The notes under the pieces: generated by a model
Seen by the model: only the letters and a program-made list of their open reading frames with translations
Told to the model about the DNA's origin: nothing
The model's database searches: none
Part shown: positions 19,393 through 58,885 of the stretch, piece by piece
How positions within the stretch are numbered: position 1 is the stretch's first letter
Layout of the letters: every line of letters starts with the position of its first letter
Program-made: the position numbers and the translations under genes
Origin: Novosphingobium subterraneum
Lineage (GTDB): Bacteria; Pseudomonadota; Alphaproteobacteria; Sphingomonadales; Sphingomonadaceae
Assembly: GCF_000807925.1 (NCBI RefSeq)
Contig: NZ_JRVC01000006.1
Coordinates: 124,001-188,000 of the forward strand
Length of the DNA stretch: 64,000 bases
Reading direction: 5' to 3'

Positions 19393-19436
19393 CTGGCTCT
19401 CCCATGTGAAGCTTGTGCGGGAATGCCCACCCCCGG

Positions 19437-19460
19437 CCCCTCCCGCTTTCGGGAGGGGGG
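19437..19460. repeat. Intergenic palindrome CCCCTCCCG...CGGGAGGGG
   Basis: A 9-bp GC-rich stem in the cdd-dcd gap. Very similar palindromes occur at 45726-45747 and 59397-59418, so this is one member of a dispersed repeat family. Confidence 0.6.
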
Positions 19461-19475
19461 AATGGCCCGAAATGT

Positions 19476-19910: not shown

Positions 19911-19920
19911 ACCGGCATCC

Positions 19921-20631: not shown

Positions 20632-20662
20632 ATGGAGAGTTGCGCGCGCCCCGAGTCTCAGA

Positions 20663-21145: not shown

Positions 21146-21207
21146 AGAGGTCACCTGTGTTGCAGACGCATTGGGCTCGGGCAAGGGTTTTGACCCGGTG
21201 CTCCCCG

Positions 21208-21216
21208 CTATCCACA
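21208..21216. promoter_or_regulatory. DnaA-box-like 9-mer CTATCCACA upstream of dnaB
   Basis: One mismatch to TTATCCACA, in the 117-bp gap between UPF0262 and dnaB. It could let DnaA modulate helicase expression; this is inference from position and similarity. Confidence 0.4.
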
Positions 21217-21262
21217 GGGTCCGTCCATTGCCGGATCGGGCCGGTTCGGGCACTATGGGCAA

Positions 21263-22777
21263 ATGTCCGCCAGCGAAGCCATCCTCACCCGCGAACCTTC
21301 GGAAATCCGCGCGCTCCCCTCCAACGTCGAGGCGGAAGCGGCCTTTCTGGGGGCGGTGCTGATCGATAATCGCATCCTGGAGGAACTGCAGACCCCGCTG
21401 AAATCCGAGCATTTCTTTGCCGCCGTCCATGGCCGGGTGTTCGAGCGCATCCAGGCGCTGATCGATCGCAAGGCGGTGGTCACCCCAGTGACATTGAAGC
21501 CCTATTTCGAGAGCGACGAGGGGCTGAAGGAACTCGGCGGCGTTGCCTATCTGGCGCGGCTGACCTCGGACGGGCAGGGCCTGCTCAATCCGCGCGAACT
21601 GGCCGAGCAGATCTATGATCTCGCCCTGCTGCGGGAGCTGATCTCGGTCGGGCGCAACCTTGTCGAAGGCGCGCTCGATACAAGCGATTCGGTCGCCCCG
21701 CTGGAGCAGGTGGAGAAAGCCGAAGCCGCACTCTATGCCGTGGCAGAAGGTGCGCAGACCGGGAGCGAGGCGCAGAGCTTTGCGCAGGCGACGCGCGCAT
21801 CGCTGGAGATGATCGAGAAGGCGCTGCTTTCGGGCGGCCATATCTCGGGCAAGACCACGGGCCTGACCTCGGTCAACGAGAAGATCGGCGGCCTGCACGA
21901 TTCGGACCTCATCATCCTTGCCGGACGCCCCGGCATGGGCAAGACCTCTCTCGTCACCAACATCGCATTCAACGCGGCCGACCGGCTGCGCCGCGACATG
22001 GCCGATGGCATTGCGCTCAAGGATTCGGTGGGGGCAGGGGTCGCCTTTTTCAGCCTGGAAATGAGCGCCGACCAGCTCGCCACGCGTATCCTGGCCGAAC
22101 AGTCGGGCATCAGTTCCGAAGCGCTGCGCATGGGCCGAATCAGCCGCGAGGACTTCCAGCAGCTGTCGTTCGCCAGCCAGCGTCTGGCCGAACTGCCCCT
22201 CTATATCGACGATACCCCGGCGCTGACGATCGGGTCCTTGCGCGCGCGTGCCCGCCGCCTGAAGCGTCGCCACGATATCGGGCTGATCATCGTCGACTAC
22301 CTGCAGCTGCTGCAGGGATCGGGCCGGAGCGACAACCGCGTGAACGAGATCTCGGAAATCTCGCGCGGTTTGAAAACGCTGGCCAAGGAACTCTCGGTTC
22401 CGGTGATCGCGCTTTCGCAGCTTTCCCGTGCGGTGGAACAGCGCGACGACAAGCGCCCGATGCTGTCGGACCTGCGCGAATCCGGCTCGATCGAGCAGGA
22501 CGCCGACATGGTGTGGTTCGTGTTCCGCGAGGACTATTACGTCGCCGCCAAGGAGCCGAAGCAGCCGCAGGGCAATGATGACGCCAAGGTGCAGGAAGCT
22601 CACGCCGCCTGGCAGGCGGAAATGGAGCGCGTCTATGGCCTGGCAGAACTGATCGTGGCCAAGCAGCGCCACGGCTCCACCGGCAAGGTCCGCCTGCGCT
22701 TCGAATCGCGCATCACCCGCTTCAGCGACCTTGCGCCGGATGACCTGCGTGCGGCTTATGCGAGTGATGATGAGTAG
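21263..22777 (+). CDS. dnaB: Replicative DNA helicase
   Basis: 504-aa hexameric 5'-3' helicase of the replisome. N-terminal DnaG-interacting domain (LPSNVEAEAAFLGAVLIDN), then the RecA-like core: Walker A AGRPGMGKTSL, FFSLEMSADQLATRIL, Walker B LIIVDYLQLL, and DKRPMLSDLRESGSIEQDAD. Length is usual for alphaproteobacteria. A DnaA-box-like 9-mer lies just upstream. Followed by rpoZ on the same strand after 72 bp. Confidence 0.98.
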   Translation: MSASEAILTREPSEIRALPSNVEAEAAFLGAVLIDNRILEELQTPLKSEHFFAAVHGRVFERIQALIDRKAVVTPVTLKPYFESDEGLKELGGVAYLARLTSDGQGLLNPRELAEQIYDLALLRELISVGRNLVEGALDTSDSVAPLEQVEKAEAALYAVAEGAQTGSEAQSFAQATRASLEMIEKALLSGGHISGKTTGLTSVNEKIGGLHDSDLIILAGRPGMGKTSLVTNIAFNAADRLRRDMADGIALKDSVGAGVAFFSLEMSADQLATRILAEQSGISSEALRMGRISREDFQQLSFASQRLAELPLYIDDTPALTIGSLRARARRLKRRHDIGLIIVDYLQLLQGSGRSDNRVNEISEISRGLKTLAKELSVPVIALSQLSRAVEQRDDKRPMLSDLRESGSIEQDADMVWFVFREDYYVAAKEPKQPQGNDDAKVQEAHAAWQAEMERVYGLAELIVAKQRHGSTGKVRLRFESRITRFSDLAPDDLRAAYASDDE

Positions 22778-22849
22778 TTTTCTTGACTTTTCCACACCTC
22801 CGGCCTAGCTGCCGTCCTTTCCGTATCCTTTGATTGATTGGAGTGCCTG

Positions 22850-23194
22850 ATGGCGCGCGTTACCGTCGAAGATTGCGTCGACAAGGTCCCCAACCGTTTC
22901 GATCTCGTCCTGCTGGCTGCCGAGCGCGCACGCGCGATTTCGGGCGGCGCCGAACTTACCGTCGATCGTGACCGCGACAAGAACCCGGTCGTCGCCCTGC
23001 GCGAGATCGCCGAAGAGACCGTGCGTCCCGCCGTGCTCAAGGAAAACGTGATCCAGTCGCTGCAGCGCGTGCTGCCCGATGACGACGATGAAGTCGATGA
23101 AATCGGCTCGCTGTCGCAGTCGGCCGAAGCGCTGCGCATCACCGCCGCGGCACCGGTGCGCAACACCTCGCTGGGTGCTGACTACGACGGCTGA
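22850..23194 (+). CDS. rpoZ: RNA polymerase omega subunit
   Basis: 114-aa subunit that helps assemble the beta-prime subunit. Diagnostic [20 protein letters not shown] start, [10 protein letters not shown] in the middle, and an acidic C-terminal extension ([10 protein letters not shown]) common in alphaproteobacteria. ATG at 22850 follows TTGGAGTGCCTG. Ended by a strong hairpin. No spoT/rel gene follows, unlike many genomes. Confidence 0.96.
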
Positions 23195-23220
23195 TTTGAG
23201 TTTCAGATCAATGACTTAAA

Positions 23221-23250
23221 AAAGCCCGCAGTTCGCGCTGCGGGCTTTTT
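23221..23250. terminator. Bidirectional terminator after rpoZ
   Basis: AAAGCCCGCAG with CTGCGGGCTTT closes a short loop, with a T-run on the plus side and an A-run before the stem, so it works both ways between rpoZ and the converging NTF2-like gene. Confidence 0.9.
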
Positions 23251-23634
23251 TCATGTGTTTTCCAGTCTTTCAGCCATCAGCTGCCAGACTTTGTTGATCG
23301 CCTTCAACGGGCGGACCATCACCTTGAAATCGGCGATGCGGCCTTCGAGGTCGAAGCGGATCAGGTCGATGCCATTGACCTTGATCCCGTCCATCTCGCA
23401 TTCGAACTCGAGGCAGGCTTCGGCCCCATCCACGAGCTCGCGCACGTAGCGGAAGGTGCCGTTGCCGAAGACCTCGCCGGCAGCGGTGAGGTACATCAGC
23501 ACCTTTTCGCGGCCCTCCTGCGGCGTGTGGACAACGGGGGAGTGGAACACGGCATCGTCGGCGACAAGTTCGTCGAGCAGCGCAATGTCGCCGCTGACCA
23601 TATATCGGTGCCAGGCTGCAAGGCCGAGTTTCAT
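23251..23634 (-). CDS. NTF2/SnoaL-like fold protein
   Basis: 127-aa protein with the SnoaL-like pattern: WHRYMVSGDIALLDELVADDAVFHSP at the N-terminus and GIDLIRFDLEGRIADFKVMVRPLKAINKVW at the C-terminus. Members include isomerases, hydrolases and simple binding proteins; residues here do not single out one reaction. It lies 76 bp downstream of the dienelactone-hydrolase gene on the same strand and is probably co-transcribed with it. Confidence 0.85.
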   Translation of the reverse strand: MKLGLAAWHRYMVSGDIALLDELVADDAVFHSPVVHTPQEGREKVLMYLTAAGEVFGNGTFRYVRELVDGAEACLEFECEMDGIKVNGIDLIRFDLEGRIADFKVMVRPLKAINKVWQLMAERLENT

Positions 23635-23710
23635 GTGCTTCTCCCGTTGTTCTGTTTCTGGTTAGGGCAGGGGCGTTGCATCGGCATTGATCCGGCGCAA
23701 CGCTGGCGCC

Positions 23711-24409
23711 TCAGCCGAGATGCTGCGCGAAGAAATCGCGGGTGCGGCGATCGGCGAGGGCCGCGCCGTCTTCGTCACGGCGGCTGCCCATCTCGGCAGC
23801 AAAGCCGTGGTCCAGCCCTTCGTAATCGTGCAGCGTGACCCGGGGATGCGGATCGAGCGCATTATGGATCGCCTTCTGCGCATCCGGACCAACGAAATGG
23901 TCAGCAGTCGGGATGTGCAGCATGAGCGGGTTGGCAATGGCGTGTGCTTCGTTCAGCATCTGGTCGATCATCACGCCGTAGTAGCCAACCGAGGCGTCGA
24001 TATCGGTGCGCGCCGCCGCCATGTAGGCCATACGCCCACCCAGGCAGAAGCCGACGAGGCCGACCTTGTCGATGCCTTCATATCCGCGCAGGAAGCGGAT
24101 CGCCGCTTCGATGTCCTTCACGCCCGCATCCGGATCGTACTGGCCGAAATAGCCGAGGGCTTCCTGGAACTGCTCGGGCACGTCGGCATCGAGCTCTACG
24201 CCGGGTGCAAAGCGCCAGAAGATGTCAGGCGCCAGCGCCATGTAGCCCAGATCGGCCCAGGCCTCGCACTTGTGGCGGATGCCGGGATTCACGCCGAAGA
24301 TCTCGGGGATGACGATGATGGCGGCGCGGATGGGGCCGTCGGGCGTTGCCAGATAGCCCGGAATTTCGCCTTCGCCATCGAGCGCTGCAAACGTGATCTT
24401 TTCACCCAT
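23711..24409 (-). CDS. Dienelactone hydrolase family protein
   Basis: 232-aa alpha/beta hydrolase. The nucleophile motif is GFCLGG (catalytic Cys, as in carboxymethylenebutenolidase), with the acid and base expected in PTADHFVG and LDHGFA. The N-terminal VIPEIFGVNPGIRHKCEAWADLGY is diagnostic. In aromatic degradation such enzymes open dienelactones, but many homologues act on unknown esters; no chlorocatechol genes are near. Divergent from the short gene at 24526. Confidence 0.9.
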   Translation of the reverse strand: MGEKITFAALDGEGEIPGYLATPDGPIRAAIIVIPEIFGVNPGIRHKCEAWADLGYMALAPDIFWRFAPGVELDADVPEQFQEALGYFGQYDPDAGVKDIEAAIRFLRGYEGIDKVGLVGFCLGGRMAYMAAARTDIDASVGYYGVMIDQMLNEAHAIANPLMLHIPTADHFVGPDAQKAIHNALDPHPRVTLHDYEGLDHGFAAEMGSRRDEDGAALADRRTRDFFAQHLG

Positions 24410-24525
24410 TGTCGTTCATCCTGCGATTCAAAGGAGTTGGTCGGATACCATGTTGGCCCCCGCGGTGGACTTTGCCAAGCGTGCATGACAATCTCTGCCG
24501 AACAGCGGATGCCGAAAGGGCGCAC

Positions 24526-24786
24526 ATGAAAGTCACCGTCGAAGTCGATTGCACGCCCGAAGAAGCCCGCCGGTTCCTCGGCTTGCCCGATGTCTCGAAA
24601 GCGAATGACGTCTATGTCGAGAGCGTCGCCAAGGCGATGCAGGGGGCGGGCAGCCTCGACCAGTTGCAGAGCTTCGCCAAGCAGGTCGCGCCGATGGGCG
24701 AGATCGGGCTGAAGCTCTTCCAGAACTTCATGGAGCAGGGCGGACTTGGCGCCATGAGCGGAAGTTCGAAGAAGCCGAAGGACTGA
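24526..24786 (+). CDS. Short conserved protein upstream of mnmE (DUF6489-like)
   Basis: 86-aa soluble protein starting MKVTVEVDCTPEEARRFLGL and ending SGSSKKPKD. The central helical part (ESVAKAMQGAGSLDQLQSFAKQVAPMGEIGLKLFQNFMEQ) suggests a small helical domain, perhaps membrane-associated. I recall this as a DUF6489-type protein, but that name needs checking. The ATG at 24526 gives the compact conserved form. It precedes mnmE by 31 bp, with a parS-like site in the gap. Confidence 0.75.
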   Translation: MKVTVEVDCTPEEARRFLGLPDVSKANDVYVESVAKAMQGAGSLDQLQSFAKQVAPMGEIGLKLFQNFMEQGGLGAMSGSSKKPKD

Positions 24787-24802
24787 CGTTTCACGTGGAA
24801 CA
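24787..24802. other. parS-like ParB-binding site
   Basis: CGTTTCACGTGGAACA: one half matches TGTTTCAC and the other the alternative half-site GTGGAACA. It lies in the gap upstream of mnmE, 4 kb from parA. Confidence 0.75.
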
Positions 24803-24817
24803 GTGTAGGGCGGAGCG

Positions 24818-26116
24818 GTGACCGACACCATCTTCGCCCTCTCTTCCGGCCCGCCGCCCGCGGGCATTGCTGTCATTCGGATCAGTGGTCCGCGAGCCGG
24901 TCCTGCCCTGAGCGTACTCACAGGCAAGCTACCCGCGCCGCGCCGCGCCGCTTTGGCAACTCTCGCCGATCCCGCAGACGGTACCCACCTCGACCGCACA
25001 ATGGTGCTCTGGCTGCCCGGCCCCGGAACGGCCACCGGTGAGGACAGTGCCGAACTGCATCTCCATGGCGGCCGGGCTGTCGTGGCTGCCGTGGAAGCAG
25101 CGCTCGAGCGCCTGCCGGGCTTGCGCAGAGCGCAGGCGGGCGAGTTCACCCGCCGTGCCTTTGCCAATGGCCGGATCGATCTGGCGGAGGCAGAGGGCCT
25201 TGCCGATCTGCTTTCTGCCGAGACCGAACTGCAGCGACGCGTCGCACTGGCCATGGCCGAAGGCGCGCTTTCGCGTGACGTTGAAGGCTGGCGCGCGGAA
25301 CTCCTGGGCATTTCGGCAAAGCTGGAAGCGGCGCTGGACTTTTCGGATGAAGACGATGTCGCGGAAGGGGAGTGTGCGCTACCGACAGGGTTTGCCGGTG
25401 ACTGCCTTGCACTGGCAGGAAAGATCGCCGCGTGGCTCGATCGGCCCCGCGCAGAACCGCTGAAGGAGGGCTTCCGCGTCGTACTTGCCGGACCTCCCAA
25501 CGCAGGCAAGTCAACCCTGTTTAATGCACTGGTAGAGCAGGAGGCTGCGATCACGGCGGCCGAGCCCGGCACCACCCGTGATGTGCTGACGTTCGCGGCG
25601 TCGCTCGATGGCGTGCCGTTCACCTTTGTCGATACCGCCGGCCTGCGCGATGAAGGCGCGGGCGAGATCGAACGGATCGGCATCGCAAGAGCGAGGGCGG
25701 CCGCAGAGAAGGCCGACCTGATCCTGTGGCTGGGTCCAGAAGGAAAGGGACCAGAAGGACGGACCCTGTGGGAAGTTTCTGCGCGGGCGGACGATCCGGC
25801 CGCTGCCAGGAAGTCAGGGGACGCGCTGATCGTCTCTGCACGGACAGGTGAGGGAATGATGGCGCTTCGCGCAGCACTGGTCGCTCATGCACAGGGCGCG
25901 CTGCCTGCGCCGGGAGACGCAGCGCTCAATCAACGACAGCATGACCGGTTGAGCGAGGTGGCGGCATCGCTTCGATTTGCGGCAGTGGAGCGCGATGGTC
26001 TGCTGGCCGCCGAGAACCTTCGCCTCGCGCGGCGGGCGCTGGATGCACTCGTTGGCCGGACCGGCACCGAGGACATGCTTGATGCGCTGTTCGGGCGGTT
26101 CTGCATCGGCAAGTAG
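24818..26116 (+). CDS. mnmE: tRNA uridine-5-carboxymethylaminomethyl modification GTPase
   Basis: 432-aa GTPase that with MnmG modifies U34 of certain tRNAs. N-terminal folate-binding domain (TIFALSSGPPPAGIAVIRISGP), helical domain, inserted G domain (GPPNAGKSTLFNAL, Walker A; DTAGLRDEGAGEIERIGI, G3) and the C-terminal CIGK with the essential Cys. The start is GTG at 24818 (GGAG just before). First gene of the origin-proximal mnmE-mnmG-rsmG-parA-parB run. Confidence 0.97.
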   Translation: MTDTIFALSSGPPPAGIAVIRISGPRAGPALSVLTGKLPAPRRAALATLADPADGTHLDRTMVLWLPGPGTATGEDSAELHLHGGRAVVAAVEAALERLPGLRRAQAGEFTRRAFANGRIDLAEAEGLADLLSAETELQRRVALAMAEGALSRDVEGWRAELLGISAKLEAALDFSDEDDVAEGECALPTGFAGDCLALAGKIAAWLDRPRAEPLKEGFRVVLAGPPNAGKSTLFNALVEQEAAITAAEPGTTRDVLTFAASLDGVPFTFVDTAGLRDEGAGEIERIGIARARAAAEKADLILWLGPEGKGPEGRTLWEVSARADDPAAARKSGDALIVSARTGEGMMALRAALVAHAQGALPAPGDAALNQRQHDRLSEVAASLRFAAVERDGLLAAENLRLARRALDALVGRTGTEDMLDALFGRFCIGK

Positions 26117-26132
26117 TGTTTCACGTGAAACA
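26117..26132. other. parS centromere site, perfect consensus
   Basis: TGTTTCACGTGAAACA is the exact 16-bp palindrome bound by ParB. It starts on the base right after the mnmE stop codon, in the 66-bp gap before mnmG. Confidence 0.92.
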
Positions 26133-26182
26133 GTGCACCTGATGCTTTGACGCGAATCCACAAGTCGCGTATCGCGCCACTC

Positions 26183-28030
26183 ATGCAGCAATTCGACATC
26201 ATCGTGGTCGGCGGCGGACATGCCGGCGTCGAGGCGGCCGCCGTTGCGGCGCGAATGGGTGCACGCACCGCTCTGGTCTCGTTCGATCCTGCAACGGTTG
26301 GCGCAATGAGCTGCAACCCGGCGATTGGCGGCCTAGGCAAGGGCCACTTGGTTCGCGAGGTCGATGCCTTTGACGGCCTGATCGCGCGCGCAGCCGACGC
26401 GAGCGCCATCCACTACCGCATGCTGAACAGGTCGAAGGGCAGCGCGGTGCAGGGACCGCGCGTGCAGGCGGACCGCAAGCGCTTCAAGGCGGCAATCCAG
26501 ATGATGATCGCCGCACAGCCGAACCTGACGCTTGTCGGGGGCGAGGCTGCGGCGCTCCATCTCGAAAACGGGCAAGTTGCCGGCGTAGACCTGGCCGACG
26601 GCTCGCGACTGCAGGGCAGGGCGGTCGTCCTGTGCACCGGCACGTTCCTGGGCGGGCGCCTGTTCCGCGGCGAGGAGCGCATGGACGGCGGCCGGATCGG
26701 GGAAAGTTCGGCGCATCGCCTCGCTCAGCAGTTGCGGGCAGCAGACCTGCCGATGGCGCGCCTCAAGACCGGGACGCCGCCACGTATCGACGGTCGGACC
26801 ATCGATTGGGCACGCCTGCCTGAGCAGCCGAGCGATGCCGACCCGTGGACGATGTCGCCGCTGACCAAGGCCCGTCCGCTGCCGCAGGTGTTCTGCGCCA
26901 TCGCCCGGACCAACGAACGGACGCACGAGATCATCCGGGCAGGGCTGGATCGGTCTCCGCTCTTCACCGGTGCCATCGGCGCACAGGGTCCGCGCTATTG
27001 CCCGTCGATCGAGGACAAGATCCATCGCTTCGGCGACCGTGACGGGCATCAGGTCTTCCTGGAACCAGAAGGGCTGGACGACCCGACCGTCTATCCCAAT
27101 GGAGTCTCCACCTCGCTGCCGACGGATGTGCAGGTGGCGATGATCCGTTCGATGGAAGGGCTGGAGCAGGCCGAGATCACCGTGCCCGGCTACGCTGTCG
27201 AGTACGACCACATCGATCCGCGCGCGCTGCGCCGGAGCCTTGAGGTCAAGGCGATTCCAGGCCTCTACTGCGCCGGCCAGATCAACGGCACGACCGGGTA
27301 CGAGGAAGCCGCGGCGCAGGGGCTCGTCGCCGGAATGCATGCCGCCGCGGCGGTGCTGGGACGTGAAGCTCCGGAGCTCGATCGCGCCAACAGCTACATG
27401 GCAGTGATGGTCGATGACCTGACCCTGCACGGCGTGAGCGAGCCCTACCGGATGCTGACGGCACGGGCCGAGTATCGCCTCCGCCTGCGGGCCAACAATG
27501 CGAGTTCGCGGCTGACGCCGATCGGCCTGGCGGTCGGGTGCATCGCTGATGAGCGAGCCCAGTGGTTCGAAGCGCGACAGGCGATGCGGGGACGGCTGGA
27601 AGAAGCACTGGCGCAGACAGCAACGCCTACCGAGCTCGGCCGCGTCGGCATGACGGTTGGCGCGGATGGAGCGCGACGCTCACTGACAGAATGGCTGCGC
27701 TTTCCGGAAGTGACGCTCGAAACCTTGCGGCCTTGGATAGGCGATGAGACCTTCGATCCACTCCTTGCCGAGGAGATTGAGGAAGACGCAGCTTACGCGC
27801 CGTACCTCGCACGGCAGGAGGCTGAGCTGCGGGACCTGCGTGCGTCGGAACATGTCCCCTTGGGGGAGGGCTTCCCCTTTGCTGAAGTGCCCGGCCTGTC
27901 GCGCGAGATGGTCGAGCGACTGGAGAAGGCTCAGCCTGACACCCTTGCTGCTGCCGGTCGCATTGCCGGAATTACCCCGGCAGCGCTCGCCAGTCTGCTG
28001 GTTCACGCGCGGCGGAGGATTCTGGCATGA
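26183..28030 (+). CDS. mnmG: tRNA uridine-5-carboxymethylaminomethyl modification enzyme, FAD-dependent
   Basis: 615-aa partner of MnmE (formerly GidA). FAD-binding [10 protein letters not shown] at the N-terminus, [20 protein letters not shown], and the conserved [14 protein letters not shown] segment ([15 protein letters not shown]); the C-terminal MnmE-binding part ends LVHARRRIL. The ATG at 26183 was chosen from the FAD-domain start; it lacks a clear ribosome site, and an upstream TTG at 26147 is in frame. Its stop overlaps the rsmG start as ATGA. Confidence 0.97.
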
Positions 28031-28701
28031 CGATCGCAACCGAAGCTGAAGCGCAGGCATGGTTGCGCGATGGGCTGGAGGTAGACGCTGCCACCATGGA
28101 GCGATTGGCCCATCTGGTGTCGCTGCTGCTGGAAGAGAACGAGCGGCAGAACCTCGTGGCGAGAGGAACGTTGCCGCACGTGTGGGTGCGCCATATCGTT
28201 GATTCCGCCCAATTGCTGCATGTTTCACGTGAAACACTTCCAGCGGGGGAGTGGCTCGATCTTGGCACCGGTGCGGGCTTTCCGGGCCTCGCCATCGCTG
28301 CGCTGCAACCTCAACGGCCGGTGACACTGGTAGATTCCCGGCGCCTGCGCACCGAGTGGCTTCAGCGCGCGGCAGATGTACTGGGACTAGGCAATGTCCG
28401 CGTTGTGCTGTCGCGGGTGGAGGACCTTCCATCCGGTCCGCATGCGGTCATTTCTGCTCGGGCATTTGCGCCTCTGGACAAGCTGGTCACTCTTTCCGCA
28501 CGCTTTTCCACACCGGACACGGTCTGGCTGTTGCCGAAAGGGGCAGGGGCAGCGCAAGAATTGCAGATGCTCCCCGAATCATGGAATCACATGTTCCACG
28601 TGGAACAATCCCTCACGGATGCGAACGCTGGTGTGATCTGCGGCCGACTTCTCGGCGGCAGTCCACCGCGCCCCTCGAACGCCAAGGGCAAACGCAAATG
28701 A
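28027..28701 (+). CDS. rsmG: 16S rRNA (guanine527-N7)-methyltransferase
   Basis: 224-aa SAM-dependent methyltransferase (formerly GidB) acting on G527 of 16S rRNA; loss gives low-level streptomycin resistance in other bacteria. Seen: [21 protein letters not shown], the SAM loop [14 protein letters not shown] and [11 protein letters not shown]. Overlaps mnmG (ATGA) and parA (ATGA). Two perfect parS sites are embedded in the coding sequence without breaking the frame. Confidence 0.96.
28221..28236. other. parS centromere site inside rsmG, perfect consensus
   Basis: TGTTTCACGTGAAACA, identical to the site at 26117-26132, encoded within rsmG (reads LHVSRETL). Confidence 0.92.
28592..28607. other. 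parS centromere site inside rsmG, GG/CC variant
   Basis: TGTTCCACGTGGAACA, a perfect palindrome of the alternative parS half-site, 371 bp from the previous copy and 91 bp before parA. Confidence 0.88.
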
Positions 28702-29474
28702 TCACGATCGCGGTCGCAAACCAGAAGGGCGGAGTGGGCAAGACCACTACGGCGATCAACATCGCCACCGCACTCGCGGCAACGGGGTGGAAGACGCTGC
28801 TGGTCGATCTCGATCCGCAGGGCAACTGCTCGACGGGCATCGGTATCGCGGCGGGTGAACGTGAGCGATCTTCCTATGACTTGCTGATCGATCAGGCTTC
28901 GGTCGCCGATTGCCTGATGGCGACACGCATCCCGGGCCTGGATATCGTACCTGCGACGGTCGATCTGTCCGGCGCGGAAGTGGAGCTGGTCAGTGTCGAG
29001 GACCGCACTCATCGCCTGCGCAAGGTGCTCAATGGCGATACCGGGCATGACATCTGCCTGATCGATTGCCCGCCGTCGCTCGGGTTGCTGACGCTCAATG
29101 CCCTTACCGCGGCGGACACGATCCTGGTGCCGCTGCAATGCGAGTTCTTCGCGCTCGAAGGGTTGAGTCAATTGTTGCAGACGGTGGAGCGGGTGCAGGA
29201 GCGGTTCAATCCGGACCTGGGCATCCTTGGCATCGTGCTGACCATGTATGACCGGCGCAACCGCCTGACCGACCAGGTCGCCGATGACGTGCGTTCGTGC
29301 CTGCGCGATCTGGTGTTCGAGAGCGTGATTCCGCGCAACGTGCGCTTGTCGGAAGCGCCGAGCCACGGGTTGCCAGCGCTGATCTATGACCATGCCTGCC
29401 CCGGATCGCAGGCCTACATGAAACTGGCGCGCGAACTGATCGGTCGCCTGCCCGAGAGGAGACAAGCGGCATGA
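28698..29474 (+). CDS. parA: Chromosome-partitioning ATPase ParA
   Basis: 258-aa Walker-type ATPase that moves ParB-parS complexes and newly copied origins. Deviant Walker A KGGVGKTTT at 10-18, Walker A' DLDPQGN at 38-44, Walker B DICLIDCPPSLG at 118-129. The start at 28698 overlaps the rsmG stop (ATGA), and its own stop overlaps parB the same way. The Soj-type length (no N-terminal HTH) is that of chromosomal ParA. Confidence 0.97.
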   Translation: MITIAVANQKGGVGKTTTAINIATALAATGWKTLLVDLDPQGNCSTGIGIAAGERERSSYDLLIDQASVADCLMATRIPGLDIVPATVDLSGAEVELVSVEDRTHRLRKVLNGDTGHDICLIDCPPSLGLLTLNALTAADTILVPLQCEFFALEGLSQLLQTVERVQERFNPDLGILGIVLTMYDRRNRLTDQVADDVRSCLRDLVFESVIPRNVRLSEAPSHGLPALIYDHACPGSQAYMKLARELIGRLPERRQAA

Positions 29475-30412
29475 GCGGCGAAGACGCAGTGAAAGCACCG
29501 GCACGCCGGACCGGGCTTGGCCGTGGCCTTGGCGCACTGATGGGTGAAGTGCGGCGCGAGGAGCCAATCGCGCGCATCTCGGTTTCGCCCGCGGATGTCG
29601 CCGAGAGCCGGGACGGCGGGCTGGCGCTGCTGACAGTAGCGTCGATCGAGCCGCATCCGGAACAGCCGCGCCGGCATTTTGATGAAGACGCGCTTGAAGA
29701 GCTGGCGCAGTCGATCGCGGCACGCGGCGTGATCCAGCCGGTGGTCGTGCGGCCATTGCCGGGCGGACGATATCAGCTTGTGGCTGGTGAGCGGCGCTGG
29801 CGTGCGGCGCAGAAGGCGCAGGTTCACGAGATTCCAGCGATCGTGCGCAAGCTGGATGATCGCGATGTTGCCGCGCTGGCGCTGATCGAGAACCTGCAGC
29901 GCGAGGATCTCAACCCGGTCGAAGAAGCTCGGGCCTATCAGCGCCTGGCCGACAGCGAGGGCCTGACGCAGAACGATATCGCCAAGTTCGTGGACAAGTC
30001 ACGCAGCCACGTCGCCAACATGATGCGCCTGCTCGGGCTGCCCGATGAAGTGCTCGACATGGTGGTGCGCAGCGAACTGTCGATGGGCCATGCCCGCGCG
30101 CTGATCAACGCACCCGATCCGATCGGGCTTGCACGCGAAGTGGTGGCCAAGGACCTTTCGGTTCGCGATGTCGAGAAGCTGGCGCGCAAGGCGTCGCGGC
30201 CCGAAGGCCAGCGTCGCCAGGCTCGCGCGGGCAAGGATCCGGTGGGCGCGGCGGATCTGGCAGCGATCCAGCAGCACCTCGAGGACTTCCTCGGGCTCAA
30301 GGTCACGATCCAGCCGGACTCCGATCCGACGACCGGCGCGGTGACGATTCGCTACAAGAACCTCGACCAGCTGGACCTGATCTGCCAGCGCCTGACGGGC
30401 GGTGAGTTCTAA
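29471..30412 (+). CDS. parB: Chromosome-partitioning protein ParB
   Basis: 313-aa CTP-dependent clamp that loads at parS and spreads. N-terminal ParA-activating Arg-rich segment (RRTGLGRGLGALMGE), the CTPase/ParB domain (PEQPRRHFDE, VAGERRWRAAQ near residue 105), HTH for parS (LTQNDIAKFVDKSRSHVANMMRLL) and a C-terminal dimerisation domain. Overlaps parA by four bases. The six parS-like sites in the window are its expected targets. Confidence 0.97.
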   Translation: MSGEDAVKAPARRTGLGRGLGALMGEVRREEPIARISVSPADVAESRDGGLALLTVASIEPHPEQPRRHFDEDALEELAQSIAARGVIQPVVVRPLPGGRYQLVAGERRWRAAQKAQVHEIPAIVRKLDDRDVAALALIENLQREDLNPVEEARAYQRLADSEGLTQNDIAKFVDKSRSHVANMMRLLGLPDEVLDMVVRSELSMGHARALINAPDPIGLAREVVAKDLSVRDVEKLARKASRPEGQRRQARAGKDPVGAADLAAIQQHLEDFLGLKVTIQPDSDPTTGAVTIRYKNLDQLDLICQRLTGGEF

Positions 30413-30473
30413 ATATCTGAAATTGTTGGCCTGTTCTGACGTCACGGCGTCAGCACTGCCTGCACCATCGGAC

Positions 30474-30491
30474 ATTAATTGGTCGATTAAT
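30474..30491. promoter_or_regulatory. Inverted repeat ATTAAT-N6-ATTAAT, possible operator
   Basis: Located between parB and an acyl-CoA dehydrogenase gene. It is followed at 30497 by TTGACC and, 17 bp on, a CATAGG box that could be -35/-10. An earlier stem CTGACG...CGTCAG (30437-30454) is also present. A TetR- or FadR-like operator is plausible, but no regulator gene is adjacent. Confidence 0.35.
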
Positions 30492-30559
30492 TCTCGTTGA
30501 CCGGGATGGGGCTGTGCGCATAGGCTGCGTGCAAACAACCAGAACCGGAGAGATTGGCC

Positions 30560-31714
30560 ATGTCGCTCGACCTGATCCCGCGCACAGCCTACAACGAAGA
30601 CCACGAAGCCTTCCGCCAGACCGTCCGCCGCTTTCTGCAGGACGAAGTCGCCCCGCACGCGAACGAATGGGCCGAAGCTGGCATCGTGCCCAAGAGCATC
30701 TGGCCCAAGGCAGGTGAGCTTGGCCTGCTGTGCCCGACGGTGCCCGAGGAATACGGCGGGCTCGGCCTCGACTTCGGCTACAACGCCATCGTCGACGAAG
30801 AGAGCGCCTACTATGGCCGCGTGGCCACCGGCTTCTCGCTGCAGTCGGACATCGTGGTCAACTACATCGTCTCCTACGGCTCCGAAGAGCAGAAGAAGAA
30901 GTGGCTGCCCAAGATGGTCTCGGGCGAGGTGATCACCGCCATCGCCATGACTGAACCGGGCACCGGCTCGGACCTTCAGGGCATGAAGACCACCGCGAAG
31001 AAAGACGGCAACCACTATGTGATCAACGGGTCGAAGACCTACATCACCAATGGCCAGAACGCCGACCTGATCCTGGTGTGCTGCAAGACCGACACCGACG
31101 TGCAGCCCGCATGGAAGGGCGTTTCGATCGTGCTGGTCGAAGCCGACCGTGAGGGCTTCAAGCGTGGTCGCAACCTCGACAAGATCGGCCAGGACGAAGC
31201 CGATACCTCGGAGCTGTTCTTCGAGGACGTGCGCGTTCCGATCACCAACTGCCTTGGTGAGGAGGGCAAGGGCTTCATCTACCTGATGAGCGAACTGCCG
31301 CAGGAGCGCCTGTCGATTGCCGTCAGTGCGCAGGCGTCGGCGCAGAAGGCTTTTGACGATACGGTGGAGTTCACCCGCGAGCGCAAGGCATTCGGCAAGC
31401 CGATCCTCGACTTCCAGAATACCCGCTTCACGCTGGCCGACATCAAGGCGAAGCTGCAGGTGGGCTGGGCACACCTCGATTGGGCCCTGGCGCGGCATCT
31501 GAAGCGCGAACTCACCCCCGAAGAAGGTGCTGCCGCCAAGCTTTGGCACACCGAACTGCAGTGGGAAGTGATGGACAAGTGCCTGCAGCTCCATGGCGGC
31601 GCCGGCTACATGAACGAATACGCGATTGCCCGTGCATGGCGCGGCGCGCGCGTGACGCGCATCTTCGGCGGCACCAACGAGATTATGAAGGAGCTGATCG
31701 GGCGCAAGCTTTGA
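30560..31714 (+). CDS. Acyl-CoA dehydrogenase
   Basis: 384-aa FAD enzyme introducing the alpha-beta double bond in fatty-acid or branched-chain acyl-CoA oxidation. Seen: AMTEPGTGSDLQGMKT (FAD-binding), NGSKTYITNGQNADLILV, RKAFGKPI, LQLHGGAGYMNEY and the C-terminal TRIFGGTNEIMKELI; the catalytic Glu would sit in this last half. ATG at 30560 follows GGAGAG. Substrate length not predictable. Single gene, ended by a strong hairpin. Confidence 0.94.
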   Translation: MSLDLIPRTAYNEDHEAFRQTVRRFLQDEVAPHANEWAEAGIVPKSIWPKAGELGLLCPTVPEEYGGLGLDFGYNAIVDEESAYYGRVATGFSLQSDIVVNYIVSYGSEEQKKKWLPKMVSGEVITAIAMTEPGTGSDLQGMKTTAKKDGNHYVINGSKTYITNGQNADLILVCCKTDTDVQPAWKGVSIVLVEADREGFKRGRNLDKIGQDEADTSELFFEDVRVPITNCLGEEGKGFIYLMSELPQERLSIAVSAQASAQKAFDDTVEFTRERKAFGKPILDFQNTRFTLADIKAKLQVGWAHLDWALARHLKRELTPEEGAAAKLWHTELQWEVMDKCLQLHGGAGYMNEYAIARAWRGARVTRIFGGTNEIMKELIGRKL

Positions 31715-31748
31715 TCGGTTGTGGGTCTAATCCCCGCCTGGAAATAGG

Positions 31749-35646: not shown

Positions 35647-37365
35647 TTATCCCGCAAGCGCCTCGCTGTCGAGATCGTAGAGCAGCGCTGCGCCCGCCAT
35701 GGCGGAGGAGCCGAGGCCTCGCGCTTCGGGTACGATCACGCGGTTGAAGAACTTGGTGACCGCGATCTTGCCGTGCAGGTCGGACGCGCGCGACTGGCGT
35801 GCCAGCTGCCAACCGGCGACAGCGACGGCGCACATCGTGGTGAAGGGCACCGAGCCCGCCAGCTTGTCGTCCAGCGAGGCAGTAGTGCTCATCCATTGGC
35901 CAATGGCCGCCGCGTCCCTGGCGAGCGCGGCGACTTCGGGGACGTCTTCCATTTCCGACGCGATCTCGGCCATCAGGGCCTGCAGCACGCCGCCGTTTTC
36001 GTATCCGAGCTTGCGCGTGACGAGATCCGCCGCCTGGATGCCGTTGGTGCCCTCGTAGATCGGAGCAATCCGTGAATCGCGCAGGTGCTGGGCCGCGCCG
36101 GTCTCCTCGATAAAGCCCATGCCGCCGTGGACCTGAATGCCGAGGCTGGCGACTTCGCAGCCGATGTCGGTGCCCCACGCCTTGAGCATCGGCACGAGCA
36201 GTTCCGCGCGCTTCTGCGCCGCTTCGTTGCCGAGCGCACCGCGATCGACCTGGCCTGCGGTGTAGTAGAGCAGGGCGCGGCTGCCTTCGGTCAGCGCCCG
36301 CATGCGCATCAGCATGCGGCGCACGTCGGGATGTTCGATGATCGCGACGGGGGCCTTGTCGGCCGAACCGGCGCGGGCCGACTGCACACGGTCACGCGCA
36401 TAGGCCCGCGCCTGCTGGAAGGCGCGCTCGGCGATCTGCACGCCCTGGCTGCCGACATTGATGCGGGCCGAGTTCATCATCGTGAACATGGCCCGCAAGC
36501 CGCCGTTCTCGTGGCCGACCATCTCGCCGATGCATTCGCCATCGTCGCCATAGCTCATGACGCAGGTGGGCGAGGCATGGATGCCAAGCTTGTGCTCGAT
36601 CGAGACGCAGCGCACATCGTTGCGTGCGCCAAGCGATCCGTCCTGTTCCACGTGAAACTTCGGCACGATAAACAGCGAGATACCGCGCGAACCTTCCGGC
36701 GCACCCGGCGTGCGGGCAAGAACGAGGTGGACCACGTTATCAGCCGCGTCATGCTCGCCGAACGTGATGTAGATCTTGGTCCCGGCGATGCGCCACTTGC
36801 CGGCGTGAGGCCCTTCGGTGATCGGCGTGGCGGTGGTGCGCAGCGCTCCAACATCGGAGCCGGCCTGCGGCTCGGTCAGGTTCATCGTGCCCGACCACTC
36901 GCCGCTGATCAGCTTGGGCAGGTACATGGCCTTTTGCGCGTCGCTGCCGTGATGCTCCAGCGCCTCGATCGCGCCAACAGTGAGCATCGGTAGCAGGGTG
37001 AAGCCCATGTTGGCCGCGCCCAGCGTTTCGAGAGTGGCAGTGGCCAGCGTGAACGGCAGTCCCTGACCGCCAAATTCCGTGGACCCCGCGATCGAGTTCC
37101 AGCCCTGCTCGACGAAGGCCTTGTAAGCGTCGACATAGCCGGGGGGCAGTGTCACCTCGCCATCGCGCCACTTCGCGCCGATCTGGTCGCCCGCGCGGTG
37201 CAGCGGCGCCCATTCGCCCGCAGCGAATGCGCCAATGCCTTCGACGATCGCCTCGACCAGATCGGGCGTGGCAGCGGCAAAACGTTCGCTCTGGGCCAGT
37301 TCGTCGATCCCGGCGCTCACGCGGATGGCGAGAAGCTGGTCGGCGGTGGGCGGCGTGAAAGTCAT
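35647..37365 (-). CDS. Acyl-CoA dehydrogenase with C-terminal extension (DmdC/FadE5-like)
   Basis: 572-aa enzyme, longer than the 380-residue class, of the group that includes 3-methylmercaptopropionyl-CoA dehydrogenase and long-chain acyl-CoA dehydrogenases. Seen: MNLTEPQAGSDVGALRT, GTKIYITFGEHDAADN, MNSARINVGSQGVQIAERA, GMGFIEETGAAQHLRD, RIAPIYEGTNGIQA, and a C-terminal helical domain (about 460-572). ATG follows AGGAGAGGACG. A parS-like site lies inside the coding sequence at 36644. Confidence 0.93.
   Translation of the reverse strand: MTFTPPTADQLLAIRVSAGIDELAQSERFAAATPDLVEAIVEGIGAFAAGEWAPLHRAGDQIGAKWRDGEVTLPPGYVDAYKAFVEQGWNSIAGSTEFGGQGLPFTLATATLETLGAANMGFTLLPMLTVGAIEALEHHGSDAQKAMYLPKLISGEWSGTMNLTEPQAGSDVGALRTTATPITEGPHAGKWRIAGTKIYITFGEHDAADNVVHLVLARTPGAPEGSRGISLFIVPKFHVEQDGSLGARNDVRCVSIEHKLGIHASPTCVMSYGDDGECIGEMVGHENGGLRAMFTMMNSARINVGSQGVQIAERAFQQARAYARDRVQSARAGSADKAPVAIIEHPDVRRMLMRMRALTEGSRALLYYTAGQVDRGALGNEAAQKRAELLVPMLKAWGTDIGCEVASLGIQVHGGMGFIEETGAAQHLRDSRIAPIYEGTNGIQAADLVTRKLGYENGGVLQALMAEIASEMEDVPEVAALARDAAAIGQWMSTTASLDDKLAGSVPFTTMCAVAVAGWQLARQSRASDLHGKIAVTKFFNRVIVPEARGLGSSAMAGAALLYDLDSEALAG
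36644..36659. other. parS-like ParB-binding site inside acyl-CoA dehydrogenase gene
   Basis: TGTTCCACGTGAAACT has one mismatch to the Bacillus-type parS TGTTCCACGTGAAACA. It is the rightmost of the six sites, about 6 kb past parB towards oriC. Confidence 0.75.
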
Positions 37366-46280: not shown

Positions 46281-47309
46281 TCAGTCGCGCGACCAGCTCC
46301 GCACGATCTTCAGCAGGGCCTCGACGTTTTCGATCGGAGTGTGCTGGCCGATGCCGTGGCCCAGGTTGAACACGTGCGGACGGTCGGCGAAGGCTTCGAG
46401 GACGCGGATCGTCTGCTTTTCCAGCTCCGGTCCACCCGCCAACAGCAGCAGCGGATCGACGTTGCCCTGCACCGGCATCCCGGCAGGCATTTCGCGCGCG
46501 GCCCACAGCGGGTCAATCGTCTCGTCGACGCCGACGGCATTGACGCCGGTCTCGCGGGCATAGGCGGCCAGCTTCTCGCCTGCGCCCTTGGGGAAGCCGA
46601 TCACCGGCACGGGCGGATAACGGCGCTGCATTTCGGCCGCGATCCTGGCATTGGGCGCGATGACCCAGCGTTCGAATTCGGCAGGGGCAAGGCTGCCCGA
46701 CCATGAATCGAACAGCTGCAGGCCTTCGGCACCGGCCTCGACCTGTCCCGAAAGGTATTCGATGGTCACCTGCGTGATGGCATCGATGATCGCCTGGAAC
46801 TGGCCGGGATCGCGATAGGCCAGCGCACGGGTATCGTGATGATCGCGGCTGCCTTCGCCTGCCACCATGTATGTGGCAACCGTCCATGGGCTTCCGGCAA
46901 AGCCCAGTAGCGTCGTCTCAGGGCCGATCTGTGCCTTCACCTTGGCCACCGTCTCGTAGATCGGCGAAAGGCGCTCAGGCGCCGCGACAAGGCTTTCCAG
47001 CGCAACGTCGAGCAGGCGCGGAGACAGGTCCGGGCCTTCGCCGACGAGGAACTTGAGATCCTGACCCATCGCATAGGGCACGATCAGGATGTCCGAGAAC
47101 AGGATCGCACCGTCGAAACCGAAGCGGCGGATCGGCTGCACGGTCACTTCTGCCGCGGCGTCAGTGTCATAGACCAGCGCCAGGAAACCGCCCTTTTCAG
47201 CGCGCAACTCGCGGTATTCGGGCAGGTAGCGCCCCGCCTGGCGCATCAGCCAGATCGGCCGACGAGAAAGATTCTCACCCTGAAGAGTCCTGAGAAGAGG
47301 GCCGGGCAT
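46281..47309 (-). CDS. hemE: Uroporphyrinogen decarboxylase
   Basis: 342-aa enzyme converting uroporphyrinogen III to coproporphyrinogen III. Seen: the N-terminal signature RPIWLMRQAGRYLPEYR, FSDILIVPYAMGQ with the catalytic Asp, GFAGSPWTVATYMVAG, FDSWSGSLAP, and NLGHGIGQHTP near the end. ATG at 47309 was preferred over the in-frame GTG at 47324, which would add five residues. In alphaproteobacteria hemE flanks oriC, and here the region upstream of its start has origin features. Confidence 0.97.
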   Translation of the reverse strand: MPGPLLRTLQGENLSRRPIWLMRQAGRYLPEYRELRAEKGGFLALVYDTDAAAEVTVQPIRRFGFDGAILFSDILIVPYAMGQDLKFLVGEGPDLSPRLLDVALESLVAAPERLSPIYETVAKVKAQIGPETTLLGFAGSPWTVATYMVAGEGSRDHHDTRALAYRDPGQFQAIIDAITQVTIEYLSGQVEAGAEGLQLFDSWSGSLAPAEFERWVIAPNARIAAEMQRRYPPVPVIGFPKGAGEKLAAYARETGVNAVGVDETIDPLWAAREMPAGMPVQGNVDPLLLLAGGPELEKQTIRVLEAFADRPHVFNLGHGIGQHTPIENVEALLKIVRSWSRD

Positions 47310-47650
47310 TTCGATCCAATCCACTAAAATAGATTCTTAGAATCAGGTTGAAGGTGTTTGTTGGCCCTGTGGAAACCGGGGATTGCGTGTCACTGCCCGA
47401 TTTGTGAGTCCGCTTCCACACTTTTTGCTGTTCGCGACTCTGGACAGCACATGAGTCAACGCGAAGTTCTCACCGCTCTCCACAGGCTGGGGAAAACACT
47501 GTCCACTTGTCCACAAATGGTCCTGAACAGGACTCGGATCGAGGGTGAATCTGCCGGTCAAACTTGTCCCTGACTCTGTCCCGTGGTTTATCGGTGCTGT
47601 TTCCACAGGGTCATCCCGGCCCTGCCCGGATGTCCACGGAAAGCCCGCCA
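47310..47650. other. Probable chromosomal replication origin (oriC)
   Basis: 341 bp without a gene between divergent hemE and ppsR. DnaA-box-like 9-mers: TTGTCCACA (47507-47515, one mismatch to TTATCCACA), GTTTCCACA on both strands (47368-47376 minus, 47599-47607 plus), CTCTCCACA (47476-47484) and GCTTCCACA (47412-47420). Eight GANTC sites lie at 47332, 47340, 47406, 47436, 47453, 47531, 47547 and 47572. The hemE end is A+T-rich (47320-47345, with GATTC-TTA-GAATC palindrome) and could melt first. Gene order hemE-oriC-ppsR is the Caulobacter/Rickettsia arrangement. Identification by structure and context; not experimentally proven here. Confidence 0.85.
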
Positions 47651-58543: not shown

Positions 58544-58885
58544 CTGGTCATCTTCCTGCGTCGGGTGGCAGGCAGATTGGTAAACGCTCATGCGCTCAGG
58601 CATAGCCACCCCATCCCTTGCGCTTACCTTTCGCGAATCGGCGGAACAAGCACTATCGGCCTCATTATCCACACGGAATGTCCCGCTTTGGAGGCGGTTG
58701 ATGGGATGAACGGCGGGCGAGCCAAGGGGTCAGCCACTATTCACGGCACGAATCTTACTTAACGAACCAGCCAACCGCCGTTATTGGAATCGGCGGGGAA
58801 GAAACGAGGCGCTGCGAGAGCTTTCATTGGAAGCGCGTGGATCAAGCGGTTGCCGCAGGAAACATCGAAATCGGGGCTTTTTGAT
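58544..58885. other. Gene-free divergent region rpe / DUF2141 with a perfect DnaA box
   Basis: 342 bp without a convincing gene on either strand. It must hold the promoters of both divergent genes. It contains TTATCCACA at 58665-58673 and three GANTC sites (58635, 58750, 58787). Confidence 0.6.
58665..58673. promoter_or_regulatory. Perfect DnaA box TTATCCACA
   Basis: This is the only exact consensus box noticed in the window outside oriC, sitting in the divergent rpe/DUF2141 promoter region, 11 kb from oriC. Confidence 0.55.

What the first reader, a model, noticed from the sequence alone, without database searches (positions are those of the whole stretch)
47310..47650. Probable oriC between hemE and ppsR
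The gene-free gap has five DnaA-box-like 9-mers (best TTGTCCACA), an A+T-rich edge with a GATTC-TTA-GAATC palindrome, and the hemE / ppsR-maf-aroE-coaE-dnaQ context that marks the origin in Caulobacter and Rickettsia. Locating oriC from sequence gives a testable origin for this organism.
Basis: partly seen in the sequence, partly recalled or inferred. Interest (0 to 1): 0.85.

Follow-up and report, generated by a model that had tools for sequence, protein, structure and literature searches.

The report
Replication origin studded with methylation sites
The 341-base gap between the genes hemE and ppsR in this Novosphingobium genome is very likely where copying of the chromosome starts, and it holds the densest cluster of GANTC sites on its 224-kb contig, sites that the cell-cycle enzyme CcrM is predicted to methylate, one of which sits at the same place in 99 of the 106 such gaps compared.

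Summary
The six parS sites found in the 4.88-Mb draft (up to one mismatch) all lie on this contig. In four relatives sampled along the chromosome, skew and GGGNAGGG polarity favour an origin at or near this gap, within the limits of the sampling. The gap has the densest DnaA-box-like cluster on the 224-kb contig and a layout conserved in 106 distinct gaps. dnaA lies about 197 kb or more away in 16 of 16 single-contig relatives with PpsR.

The local skew test fails: on this contig a local skew minimum and the polarity switch lie about 30-50 kb away. A 13-kb mnmE-parB inversion accounts for the polarity, not fully for the skew.

The kind is known: hemE origins were predicted for most Sphingomonadaceae. 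What I did not find in print is a dense GANTC (CcrM-site) array, 8 sites against 0.6 expected. The site at 47436 is kept in 99 of 106 gaps, 67-69 nt from a conserved DnaA-like box in 91 of the 98 gaps that have the box; its middle base changed at least 15 times on the tree, its presence at least twice. No exact CtrA box was found. CcrM gating is an inference to be tested.

The parts
47310..47650 (.). predicted chromosomal origin (oriC), gap between hemE and ppsR
   Evidence: signals in relatives
47314..47343 (.). A+T-rich block at the hemE edge, predicted duplex-unwinding element
   Evidence: 73% A+T; the most A+T-rich 30-mer starts within 60 nt of hemE in 106 of 106 distinct gaps
47332..47344 (.). 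palindrome GATTC-TTA-GAATC, two GANTC sites at the A+T-rich block
   Evidence: exact form in 6 of 78 named loci
47368..47376 (-). DnaA-box-like GTTTCCACA (TGTGGA landmark on the + strand)
   Evidence: TGTGGA within 140 nt of hemE in 98 of 106 gaps
47412..47420 (+). DnaA-box-like GCTTCCACA
47476..47484 (+). DnaA-box-like CTCTCCACA
47488..47496 (-). weak DnaA-box-like TTTTCCCCA
47507..47515 (+). best DnaA-box-like site TTGTCCACA
47599..47607 (+). DnaA-box-like GTTTCCACA near ppsR
   Evidence: GTGGTTTAT then TCCAC after 6-16 nt in 88 of 106 gaps
47436..47440 (.). conserved GANTC site (GACTC here), predicted CcrM target
   Evidence: 99 of 106 gaps; 67-69 nt from TGTGGA in 91 of 98; centre base at least 15 changes, presence at least 2
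47406..47410 (.). GANTC site (GAGTC)
47453..47457 (.). GANTC site (GAGTC)
   Evidence: 33 of 106 gaps
47531..47535 (.). GANTC site (GACTC)
   Evidence: 24 of 106 gaps
47547..47551 (.). GANTC site (GAATC)
47572..47576 (.). GANTC site (GACTC)
47564..47591 (+). conserved promoter-like pair TTGTCC-N17-TTTAT holding GTGGTTTAT, predicted ppsR promoter
   Evidence: TTGTCn-N17-TTTAT in 87 of 106 gaps, GTGGTTTAT in 91
46281..47309 (-). hemE, uroporphyrinogen decarboxylase
   Evidence: TIGR01464
47651..48493 (+). ppsR (COG1806/DUF299 regulator)
   Evidence: NF003742
10992..11005 (.). parS-like site, 1 mismatch
24788..24801 (.). parS-like site, 1 mismatch
26118..26131 (.). parS site, exact
28222..28235 (.). 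parS site, exact
36645..36658 (.). parS-like site, 1 mismatch
28251..30412 (+). parA-parB (longest ORFs), inside the block inverted relative to strain ERN07
   Evidence: Pfam AAA_31 and ParB_N; inversion

Best explanation
The hemE-ppsR gap is very likely the chromosomal replication origin of this Novosphingobium: DnaA is predicted to assemble on the TCCACA-type boxes and to open the A+T-rich block beside hemE, from which two forks would leave in opposite directions. Shown by sequence: the box cluster, the A+T-rich edge, the conserved layout, parS on the same contig, and a change of strand polarity at or near this place in four relatives. Inferred: DnaA binding, unwinding and firing. Added reading, also inferred: CcrM would methylate the GANTC array, so that a freshly copied origin is hemimethylated until CcrM acts late in the cycle. 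That state could mark or restrain the new origin, in the role that Dam/GATC/SeqA has in E. coli, or could time a GcrA-dependent promoter inside the origin. No exact CtrA box is present, so the Caulobacter-type CtrA lock is not expected here.
For: parS: 6 unique sites in the whole 4.88-Mb draft (two exact, four with one mismatch), all on this contig, 10.7-36.4 kb from the gap. In 16 single-contig family genomes, 10 have exact parS, 12 sites in all, each 5.8-10.8 kb from ppsR on the hemE side; 6 have none. Sampled relatives: with origin at the gap and terminus opposite, 84 of 100 (G095), 75 of 89 (G088), 57 of 80 (G215) and 106 of 137 (G266) GGGNAGGG sites point the expected way, and 17 of 20, 17 of 20, 17 of 20 and 24 of 31 stretches have the expected skew sign. 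In G095 the lowest summed skew is in the stretch that holds the gap; in G215 12 of 12 stretches from 230 kb to the gap stretch are negative and the 7 after it positive; in G266, PpsR 96% identical, the four stretches up to the gap stretch are negative and the next three positive. Densest box cluster on the contig. dnaA about 197 kb or more from ppsR in 16 of 16. GANTC: 8 against 0.59 expected, the only place with 6 or more per 341 bases in 224 kb; 0 of 2000 shuffles reach 8, and the seven other motifs of the same make-up number 1-2 each in the gap; 30 family gaps (this one included) 144 against 47 in shuffles; 78 named loci 16.2 against 2.3 per kb. CcrM-type methylase (N6_N4_Mtase plus RAMA) and a GcrA-family protein are encoded. 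GANTC is m6A-methylated in Sphingomonas sp. AAP5 (PMC8067484, passages).
Against: On the window's own contig there is a local skew minimum near C6 132-137 kb (window about 8-13 kb), none at the gap (the lowest sum of the contig is near its start), and the best GGGNAGGG switch is at C6 120.7-142.8 kb: 34 of 41 sites fit there, 24 of 41 at the gap. The inversion accounts for eight of the misplaced GGGNAGGG sites, not fully for the skew. In 61 related loci 45 have left < right skew within 9 kb but only 20 have left < 0 < right. In the sampled relatives the interpolated skew minimum falls 28 (G095), 145 (G088), -47 (G215) and 256 kb (G266) from ppsR after removal of the mean, and 78, 135, 8 and 6 kb without it. 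In G088 stretches at 2.16 and 2.34 Mb are positive; in G215 stretches at 2.07 and 2.40 Mb have GGGNAGGG against the reading, and in G266 the 664-684 kb stretch has 12 to 0 against it. No exact TTATCCACA and no IHF consensus in the gap. GANTC is enriched between genes on most alphaproteobacterial chromosomes (PMC8116508). The GANTC count is not always a local record: in 78 loci of up to about 20 kb the gap is strictly highest in 41, tied in 18, lower in 19. In 19 other alphaproteobacterial gaps it ranges from 0 to 8. In Caulobacter, cells without CcrM had a DNA content like wild type (PMC3973325, passages).
Confidence: 0.92

Rival explanations
1. The gap is only a divergent promoter region for hemE and ppsR, regulated through GANTC methylation and GcrA; replication starts elsewhere.
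For: A promoter-like pair before ppsR is conserved in 87 of 106 gaps. The 47436 site has TTGAC on the other strand at 13-14 nt in 70 of 99, which looks like a -35 element. A GcrA-family protein is encoded. GANTC is generally enriched between genes (PMC8116508).
Against: It does not explain the box cluster, the A+T block at the same end in 106 of 106 gaps, parS nearby, or the polarity change near this place in four relatives. YGAKTCK is found at only 24 of 99 copies of the site, against 115 of 390 contig GANTC sites.
Confidence: 0.04
2. The origin of this strain lies about 30-50 kb away, at the local skew and GGGNAGGG switch (C6 121-143 kb).
For:: both local signals switch there, and one parS-like site is at C6 134992.
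Against: No box cluster of three or more and no GANTC cluster of six or more there. Eight of the GGGNAGGG sites that shift the switch lie in a block inverted against strain ERN07, where the block has mostly the expected polarity. In G266 the skew sign changes at the gap stretch although the stretch with its parS sites has 12 GGGNAGGG sites of the unexpected orientation.
Confidence: 0.04
3. The origin is real but the GANTC array has no role in replication; it serves transcription, or reflects the general enrichment of GANTC between genes. (This rival concerns only the added reading, so its odds do not compete with the first statement.)
For: In Caulobacter CcrM is not needed for initiation control (PMC3973325). 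GANTC is enriched between genes on most alphaproteobacterial chromosomes (PMC8116508). Most GANTC sites of the array turn over: 5-23 presence changes on the tree for the six others counted.
Against: The site at 47436 is kept with a free centre base (at least 15 changes) and a fixed distance to a DnaA-like box. The seven other motifs of the same make-up are rarer in the 30 gaps, 6-70 against 144. No other stretch of the 224-kb contig, intergenic ones included, reaches six per 341 bases.
Confidence: 0.55

Closest known systems
Predicted oriC of Sphingopyxis granuli TFA and of most Sphingomonadaceae in DoriC (PMC4741004, passages)
   Same: Next to hemE; conserved gene order; DnaA boxes and a putative unwinding element.
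   Different: The passages seen do not mention GANTC sites, parS distances or an inverted mnmE-parB block; there the organism is Sphingopyxis.
Caulobacter crescentus Cori (PMC1914354 and PMC8959179, passages)
   Same: Between hemE and COG1806 (ppsR); DnaA boxes; A+T-rich region; several GANTC motifs (PMC3973325).
   Different: Cori has five CtrA sites (TTAA-N7-TTAA) and an IHF site; here neither consensus is found.
E. coli oriC with Dam/GATC and SeqA sequestration (general knowledge; also mentioned in PMC11514494)
   Same: An array of sites for an adenine methylase inside the origin.
   Different: Other methylase and site; GATC is not enriched here (2 against 3.0 expected); no SeqA-like reader was looked for, and sequestration is untested.
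repABC origins rich in GANTC (PMC6090056) and A. tumefaciens ori2 (PMC11514494); passages seen
   Same: GANTC at an origin; for ori2, hemimethylation is proposed to prevent renewed firing.
   Different: Those use RepC; this origin has DnaA-type boxes and is chromosomal.

Membership tests
hemE-type alphaproteobacterial chromosomal origin | intergenic region next to hemE and/or COG1806 (ppsR) | tested here: met
   also 19 of 20 other alphaproteobacterial regions fetched have a hemE-ppsR gap; these 20 were chosen from 40 such genomes with a PpsR match, and 34 of 76 class genomes had none
hemE-type alphaproteobacterial chromosomal origin | cluster of DnaA-box-like sites beyond chance | tested here: met
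hemE-type alphaproteobacterial chromosomal origin | A+T-rich segment | tested here: met
hemE-type alphaproteobacterial chromosomal origin | replication polarity (skew, GGGNAGGG) switches here | tested here: inconclusive
   favoured in four sampled relatives within sampling limits; not met on the window's own contig
hemE-type alphaproteobacterial chromosomal origin | parS sites in the neighbourhood | tested here: met
   10 of 16 relatives
hemE-type alphaproteobacterial chromosomal origin | DnaA binds and replication starts in cells | not testable with these tools
   needs footprinting, marker frequency or a plasmid test
CtrA-controlled Caulobacter Cori subtype | TTAA-N7-TTAA CtrA boxes in the gap | tested here: not met
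   no exact box in this gap or in the 29 other family gaps; 17 of the 30 have at least one TTAA, this one none
CtrA-controlled Caulobacter Cori subtype | IHF consensus WATCAANNNNTTR in the gap | tested here: not met
   none on either strand of the gap
methylation-gated origin (Dam/SeqA-like) | methylase sites enriched in the origin | tested here: met
   GANTC 8 against 0.59; controls
methylation-gated origin (Dam/SeqA-like) | cognate methylase encoded | tested here: met
   CcrM-type ORF with N6_N4_Mtase and RAMA domains; its specificity is inferred
methylation-gated origin (Dam/SeqA-like) | hemimethylated state changes initiation | not testable with these tools
   needs experiment

The most novel reading that the evidence does not exclude
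Sphingomonad origins are CcrM-gated: a GANTC site locked about 68 nt from the left DnaA box, with a variable array of further GANTC sites around the boxes and the unwinding block, makes initiation depend on the methylation state, an alphaproteobacterial counterpart of Dam/SeqA sequestration in place of the missing CtrA boxes.
Probability: 0.28. Interest if true: 0.78.

Novelty: new member of a known kind. Interest (0 to 1): 0.45.

Why it matters
It gives the likely origin of a Novosphingobium and the family layout of its parts. It also bears on an open question: whether CcrM methylation controls DnaA-type origins. In Caulobacter the answer was no (PMC3973325), although a cell-cycle model assumed that the origin must be fully methylated (PMC2217572). 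A GANTC site held in place in 99 of 106 gaps gives one 5-base target with which to test it in sphingomonads, where ctrA is reported dispensable in Sphingomonas melonis (PMC8116508). The window also shows that local GC skew can mislead: here a local minimum lies some 35 kb away from the likely origin.

Tried and rejected
A dif consensus (recalled, up to 2 mismatches) found only 2 matches in 17 genomes and none in this one, so it gave no terminus. Exact TTATCCACA and the IHF and CtrA consensus were not found in the gap. The idea that the 47436 site is a classic GcrA motif YGAKTCK was tested and not supported (24 of 99). The idea that the mnmE-parB inversion explains the whole local skew anomaly was tested against strain ERN07 and rejected: ERN07 has its own skew switch 26-31 kb away although the block has the other orientation there, and colinear segments differ in sign. 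It explains only part of the GGGNAGGG anomaly (eight sites). dnaA as the origin was rejected by distance; that dnaA is not conserved near ori in Sphingomonadales is already in print (PMC8116508, passages). The palindrome as a general unwinding element was rejected: it is kept only in near relatives. Rows dropped before counts: of 17 single-contig genomes, G007 had no PpsR match and was left out; 2 of 80 named loci had no readable hemE start; the 106 distinct gaps are those of 280-450 bases out of 30 plus 78, duplicates removed, so the 976-base gap of L037 is left out; L194 had no hemE upstream; the skew comparison used 61 of 78 loci with enough flank.

Full report
What was checked. The gap 47310-47650 lies between hemE (- strand, start 47309) and ppsR (+ strand, start 47651, or 47630 in frame), followed by maf, aroE and coaE and an exonuclease of the RNase_T (DnaQ) family. 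The window is bases 124001-188000 of contig C6 (223,945 bases) of a 54-contig, 4.88-Mb draft. Its PpsR is 97% identical to that of Novosphingobium jiangmenense.

Is it more than chance? Five TCCACA cores in 341 bases against 0.11 expected from the contig; 0 of 2000 dinucleotide shuffles reach five; it is the densest cluster of box-like 9-mers on the contig, five against three for the next separate one. The A+T-rich 30-mer at 47314-47343 is matched by 0.007% of the contig's 30-mers.

Is it the origin? Four kinds of evidence were used. First, parS: the genome has six unique sites at up to one mismatch, two of them exact, all on this contig, from C6 134,992 to 208,085. In 16 single-contig genomes of the family (17, less G007 without PpsR), 10 have exact parS; the 12 sites all lie 5.8-10.8 kb from ppsR on the hemE side; 6 genomes have none.

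Second, signals along the chromosome in relatives, sampled as 20-kb stretches. With the origin at the gap and the terminus opposite, GGGNAGGG sites point the expected way in 84 of 100 (G095), 75 of 89 (G088), 57 of 80 (G215) and 106 of 137 (G266), and the skew sign fits in 17 of 20, 17 of 20, 17 of 20 and 24 of 31 stretches. G095: summed skew is lowest in the stretch with the gap, and with switches placed just after that stretch and before 1.0 Mb the majority polarity fits in 20 of 20 stretches. G088: the lowest sum is shared by the gap stretch and the next one; two stretches at 2.16 and 2.34 Mb have the wrong skew sign, and polarity has one stretch and one tie against it. G215: 12 of 12 stretches from 230 kb to the gap stretch are negative and the 7 after it positive; polarity has stretches at 2.07 and 2.40 Mb against it. 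G266, a near relative (PpsR 96% identical): skew is negative in the four stretches from 620 kb to the gap stretch and positive in the next three, mixed further out, and polarity changes again at 2.15-2.25 Mb, about half a contig away; the stretch at 664-684 kb, with parS, has 12 to 0 against the reading, as the inverted block does here. Interpolated skew minima fall 28, 145, -47 and 256 kb from ppsR with the mean removed, and 78, 135, 8 and 6 kb without, so sampling places the origin only roughly.

Third, dnaA: about 197 kb or more from ppsR in 16 of 16, and on another contig in this draft. Fourth, conservation: in 106 distinct gaps, this one included, the most A+T-rich 30-mer lies within 60 nt of hemE in 106, TGTGGA within 140 nt of hemE in 98, and GTGGTTTAT is present in 91. 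A hemE-ppsR gap is also found in 19 of 20 regions fetched from other alphaproteobacterial families; those 20 were chosen from 40 with a PpsR match, and 34 of 76 class genomes had no match.

What does not fit. On the window's own contig the skew sum has no minimum at the gap; a local minimum lies near C6 132-137 kb (the lowest value is near the contig start), and the best GGGNAGGG switch is at C6 120.7-142.8 kb: 34 of 41 sites fit there and 24 of 41 at the gap. Compared with strain ERN07 (L057, G180), the block from -28.8 to -15.9 kb (window about 18850-31715), which holds mnmE, mnmG, rsmG, parA and parB, is inverted here. It carries eight forward GGGNAGGG sites in this genome; the corresponding block of ERN07 has eight reverse and one forward. 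In 49 of 49 related loci in which mnmE is visible it lies on the - strand; here it is on the + strand. So most of the polarity shift is explained by a local inversion. The GC skew is not: ERN07 has a sharp switch 26-31 kb away without that inversion, and colinear segments of the two strains have opposite signs. In 61 related loci, left skew is below right skew in 45, and on both sides of zero in 20. I leave this unexplained; rearrangement around the origin is a likely but unproven cause.

The GANTC array. The gap has eight GANTC sites against 0.59 expected from the contig, and it is the only place in 224 kb with six or more per 341 bases; GATC is not enriched. This matters because GANTC is enriched between genes on most alphaproteobacterial chromosomes (PMC8116508, passages), and the scan includes every intergenic stretch of the contig. 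Shuffles of the gap give a mean of 1.7 and reach eight in 0 of 2000. Seven other gapped palindromes of the same make-up number one or two each in the gap; in 30 family gaps they total 6-70 each (AGNCT most) against 144 GANTC, for which shuffles give a mean of 47. In 78 named loci the gaps have 16.2 per kb and the rest 2.3 per kb; the gap is strictly the densest place of the locus in 41, tied in 18, lower in 19. In 19 gaps from other alphaproteobacterial families the number ranges from 0 to 8, so the array is strongest in, but not confined to, sphingomonads.

One site stands out. The site at 47436 is present in 99 of 106 gaps with centre base C (64) or A (35); a C before it is conserved, the bases beyond are poorly conserved. 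Without any alignment, CGA[AC]TC lies 67-69 nt from the TGTGGA box in 91 of the 98 gaps that have the box; here it is 68. On a ppsR tree the centre base changes at least 15 times while presence changes at least twice; six other GANTC positions change 5-23 times. This pattern points to selection on the GA-TC frame, hence on methylation or a reader of it. The genome encodes a CcrM-type methylase and a GcrA-family protein (the family search also rang in one archaeal control). In Sphingomonas sp. AAP5 the GANTC motif is m6A-methylated (PMC8067484, passages). A GcrA promoter at the site is possible: TTGAC lies on the other strand at 13-14 nt in 70 of 99. But the extended motif YGAKTCK (PMC7987155, passages) is present at only 24 of 99, no more than on the contig at large (115 of 390).

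What is known. The hemE-side origin was predicted for most Sphingomonadaceae in DoriC and compared in Sphingopyxis (PMC4741004, passages). The Caulobacter and Rickettsia origins lie between the same genes (PMC1914354, passages). dnaA is not conserved near ori in Sphingomonadales, and parAB is named as a possible anchor (PMC8116508, passages). Several GANTC motifs in the Caulobacter origin are noted in PMC3973325, which found that CcrM is not required for initiation control (passages). GANTC-rich repABC origins are noted in PMC6090056 (passages), and a hemimethylation block at A. tumefaciens ori2 is proposed in PMC11514494 (passages). Searches for GANTC or CcrM with Novosphingobium, oriC, Cori, Sphingomonadales or the chromosome origin, and for Novosphingobium with oriC, listed no paper that I could see to describe this array or the fixed site; of most hits only titles and abstract starts were seen. 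Sphingomonadales keep CckA-ChpT-CtrA (PMC2877005, passages), yet none of 30 family gaps has an exact CtrA box, though 17 have a TTAA.

Verdict. An ordinary kind of object, correctly recognised: a hemE-type oriC, very likely functional. The array of predicted CcrM sites, with one site locked in place, is the part worth following.

Noticed in passing
window about 18850-31715 (C6 about 142.8-155.7 kb): The mnmE-mnmG-rsmG-parA-parB block is inverted relative to strain ERN07; mnmE has the opposite strand in 49 of 49 related loci where it is visible.
   Followed up: partly
C6 120-185 kb (window to about 61000): Local GC skew differs in sign between this strain and ERN07 in colinear segments; not explained.
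   Followed up: partly
window 47564-47591: Promoter-like TTGTCC-N17-TTTAT with GTGGTTTAT, conserved in 87-91 of 106 gaps; likely the ppsR promoter, or a further protein site.
   Followed up: partly
window 58665-58673: The only exact TTATCCACA of the window lies here, far from the origin.
   Followed up: no
G007, G024, G025, G077, G082: 5 of 99 family genomes gave no PpsR match, among them G024 and G077, which are 99% complete; where their origin lies was not examined.
   Followed up: no
L061 and L062, about +9.4 kb from hemE: carD and the helicase gene, which lie between parB and rho here, are on the other side of the origin in Novosphingobium sp. SG919 and N. capsulatum.
   Followed up: no
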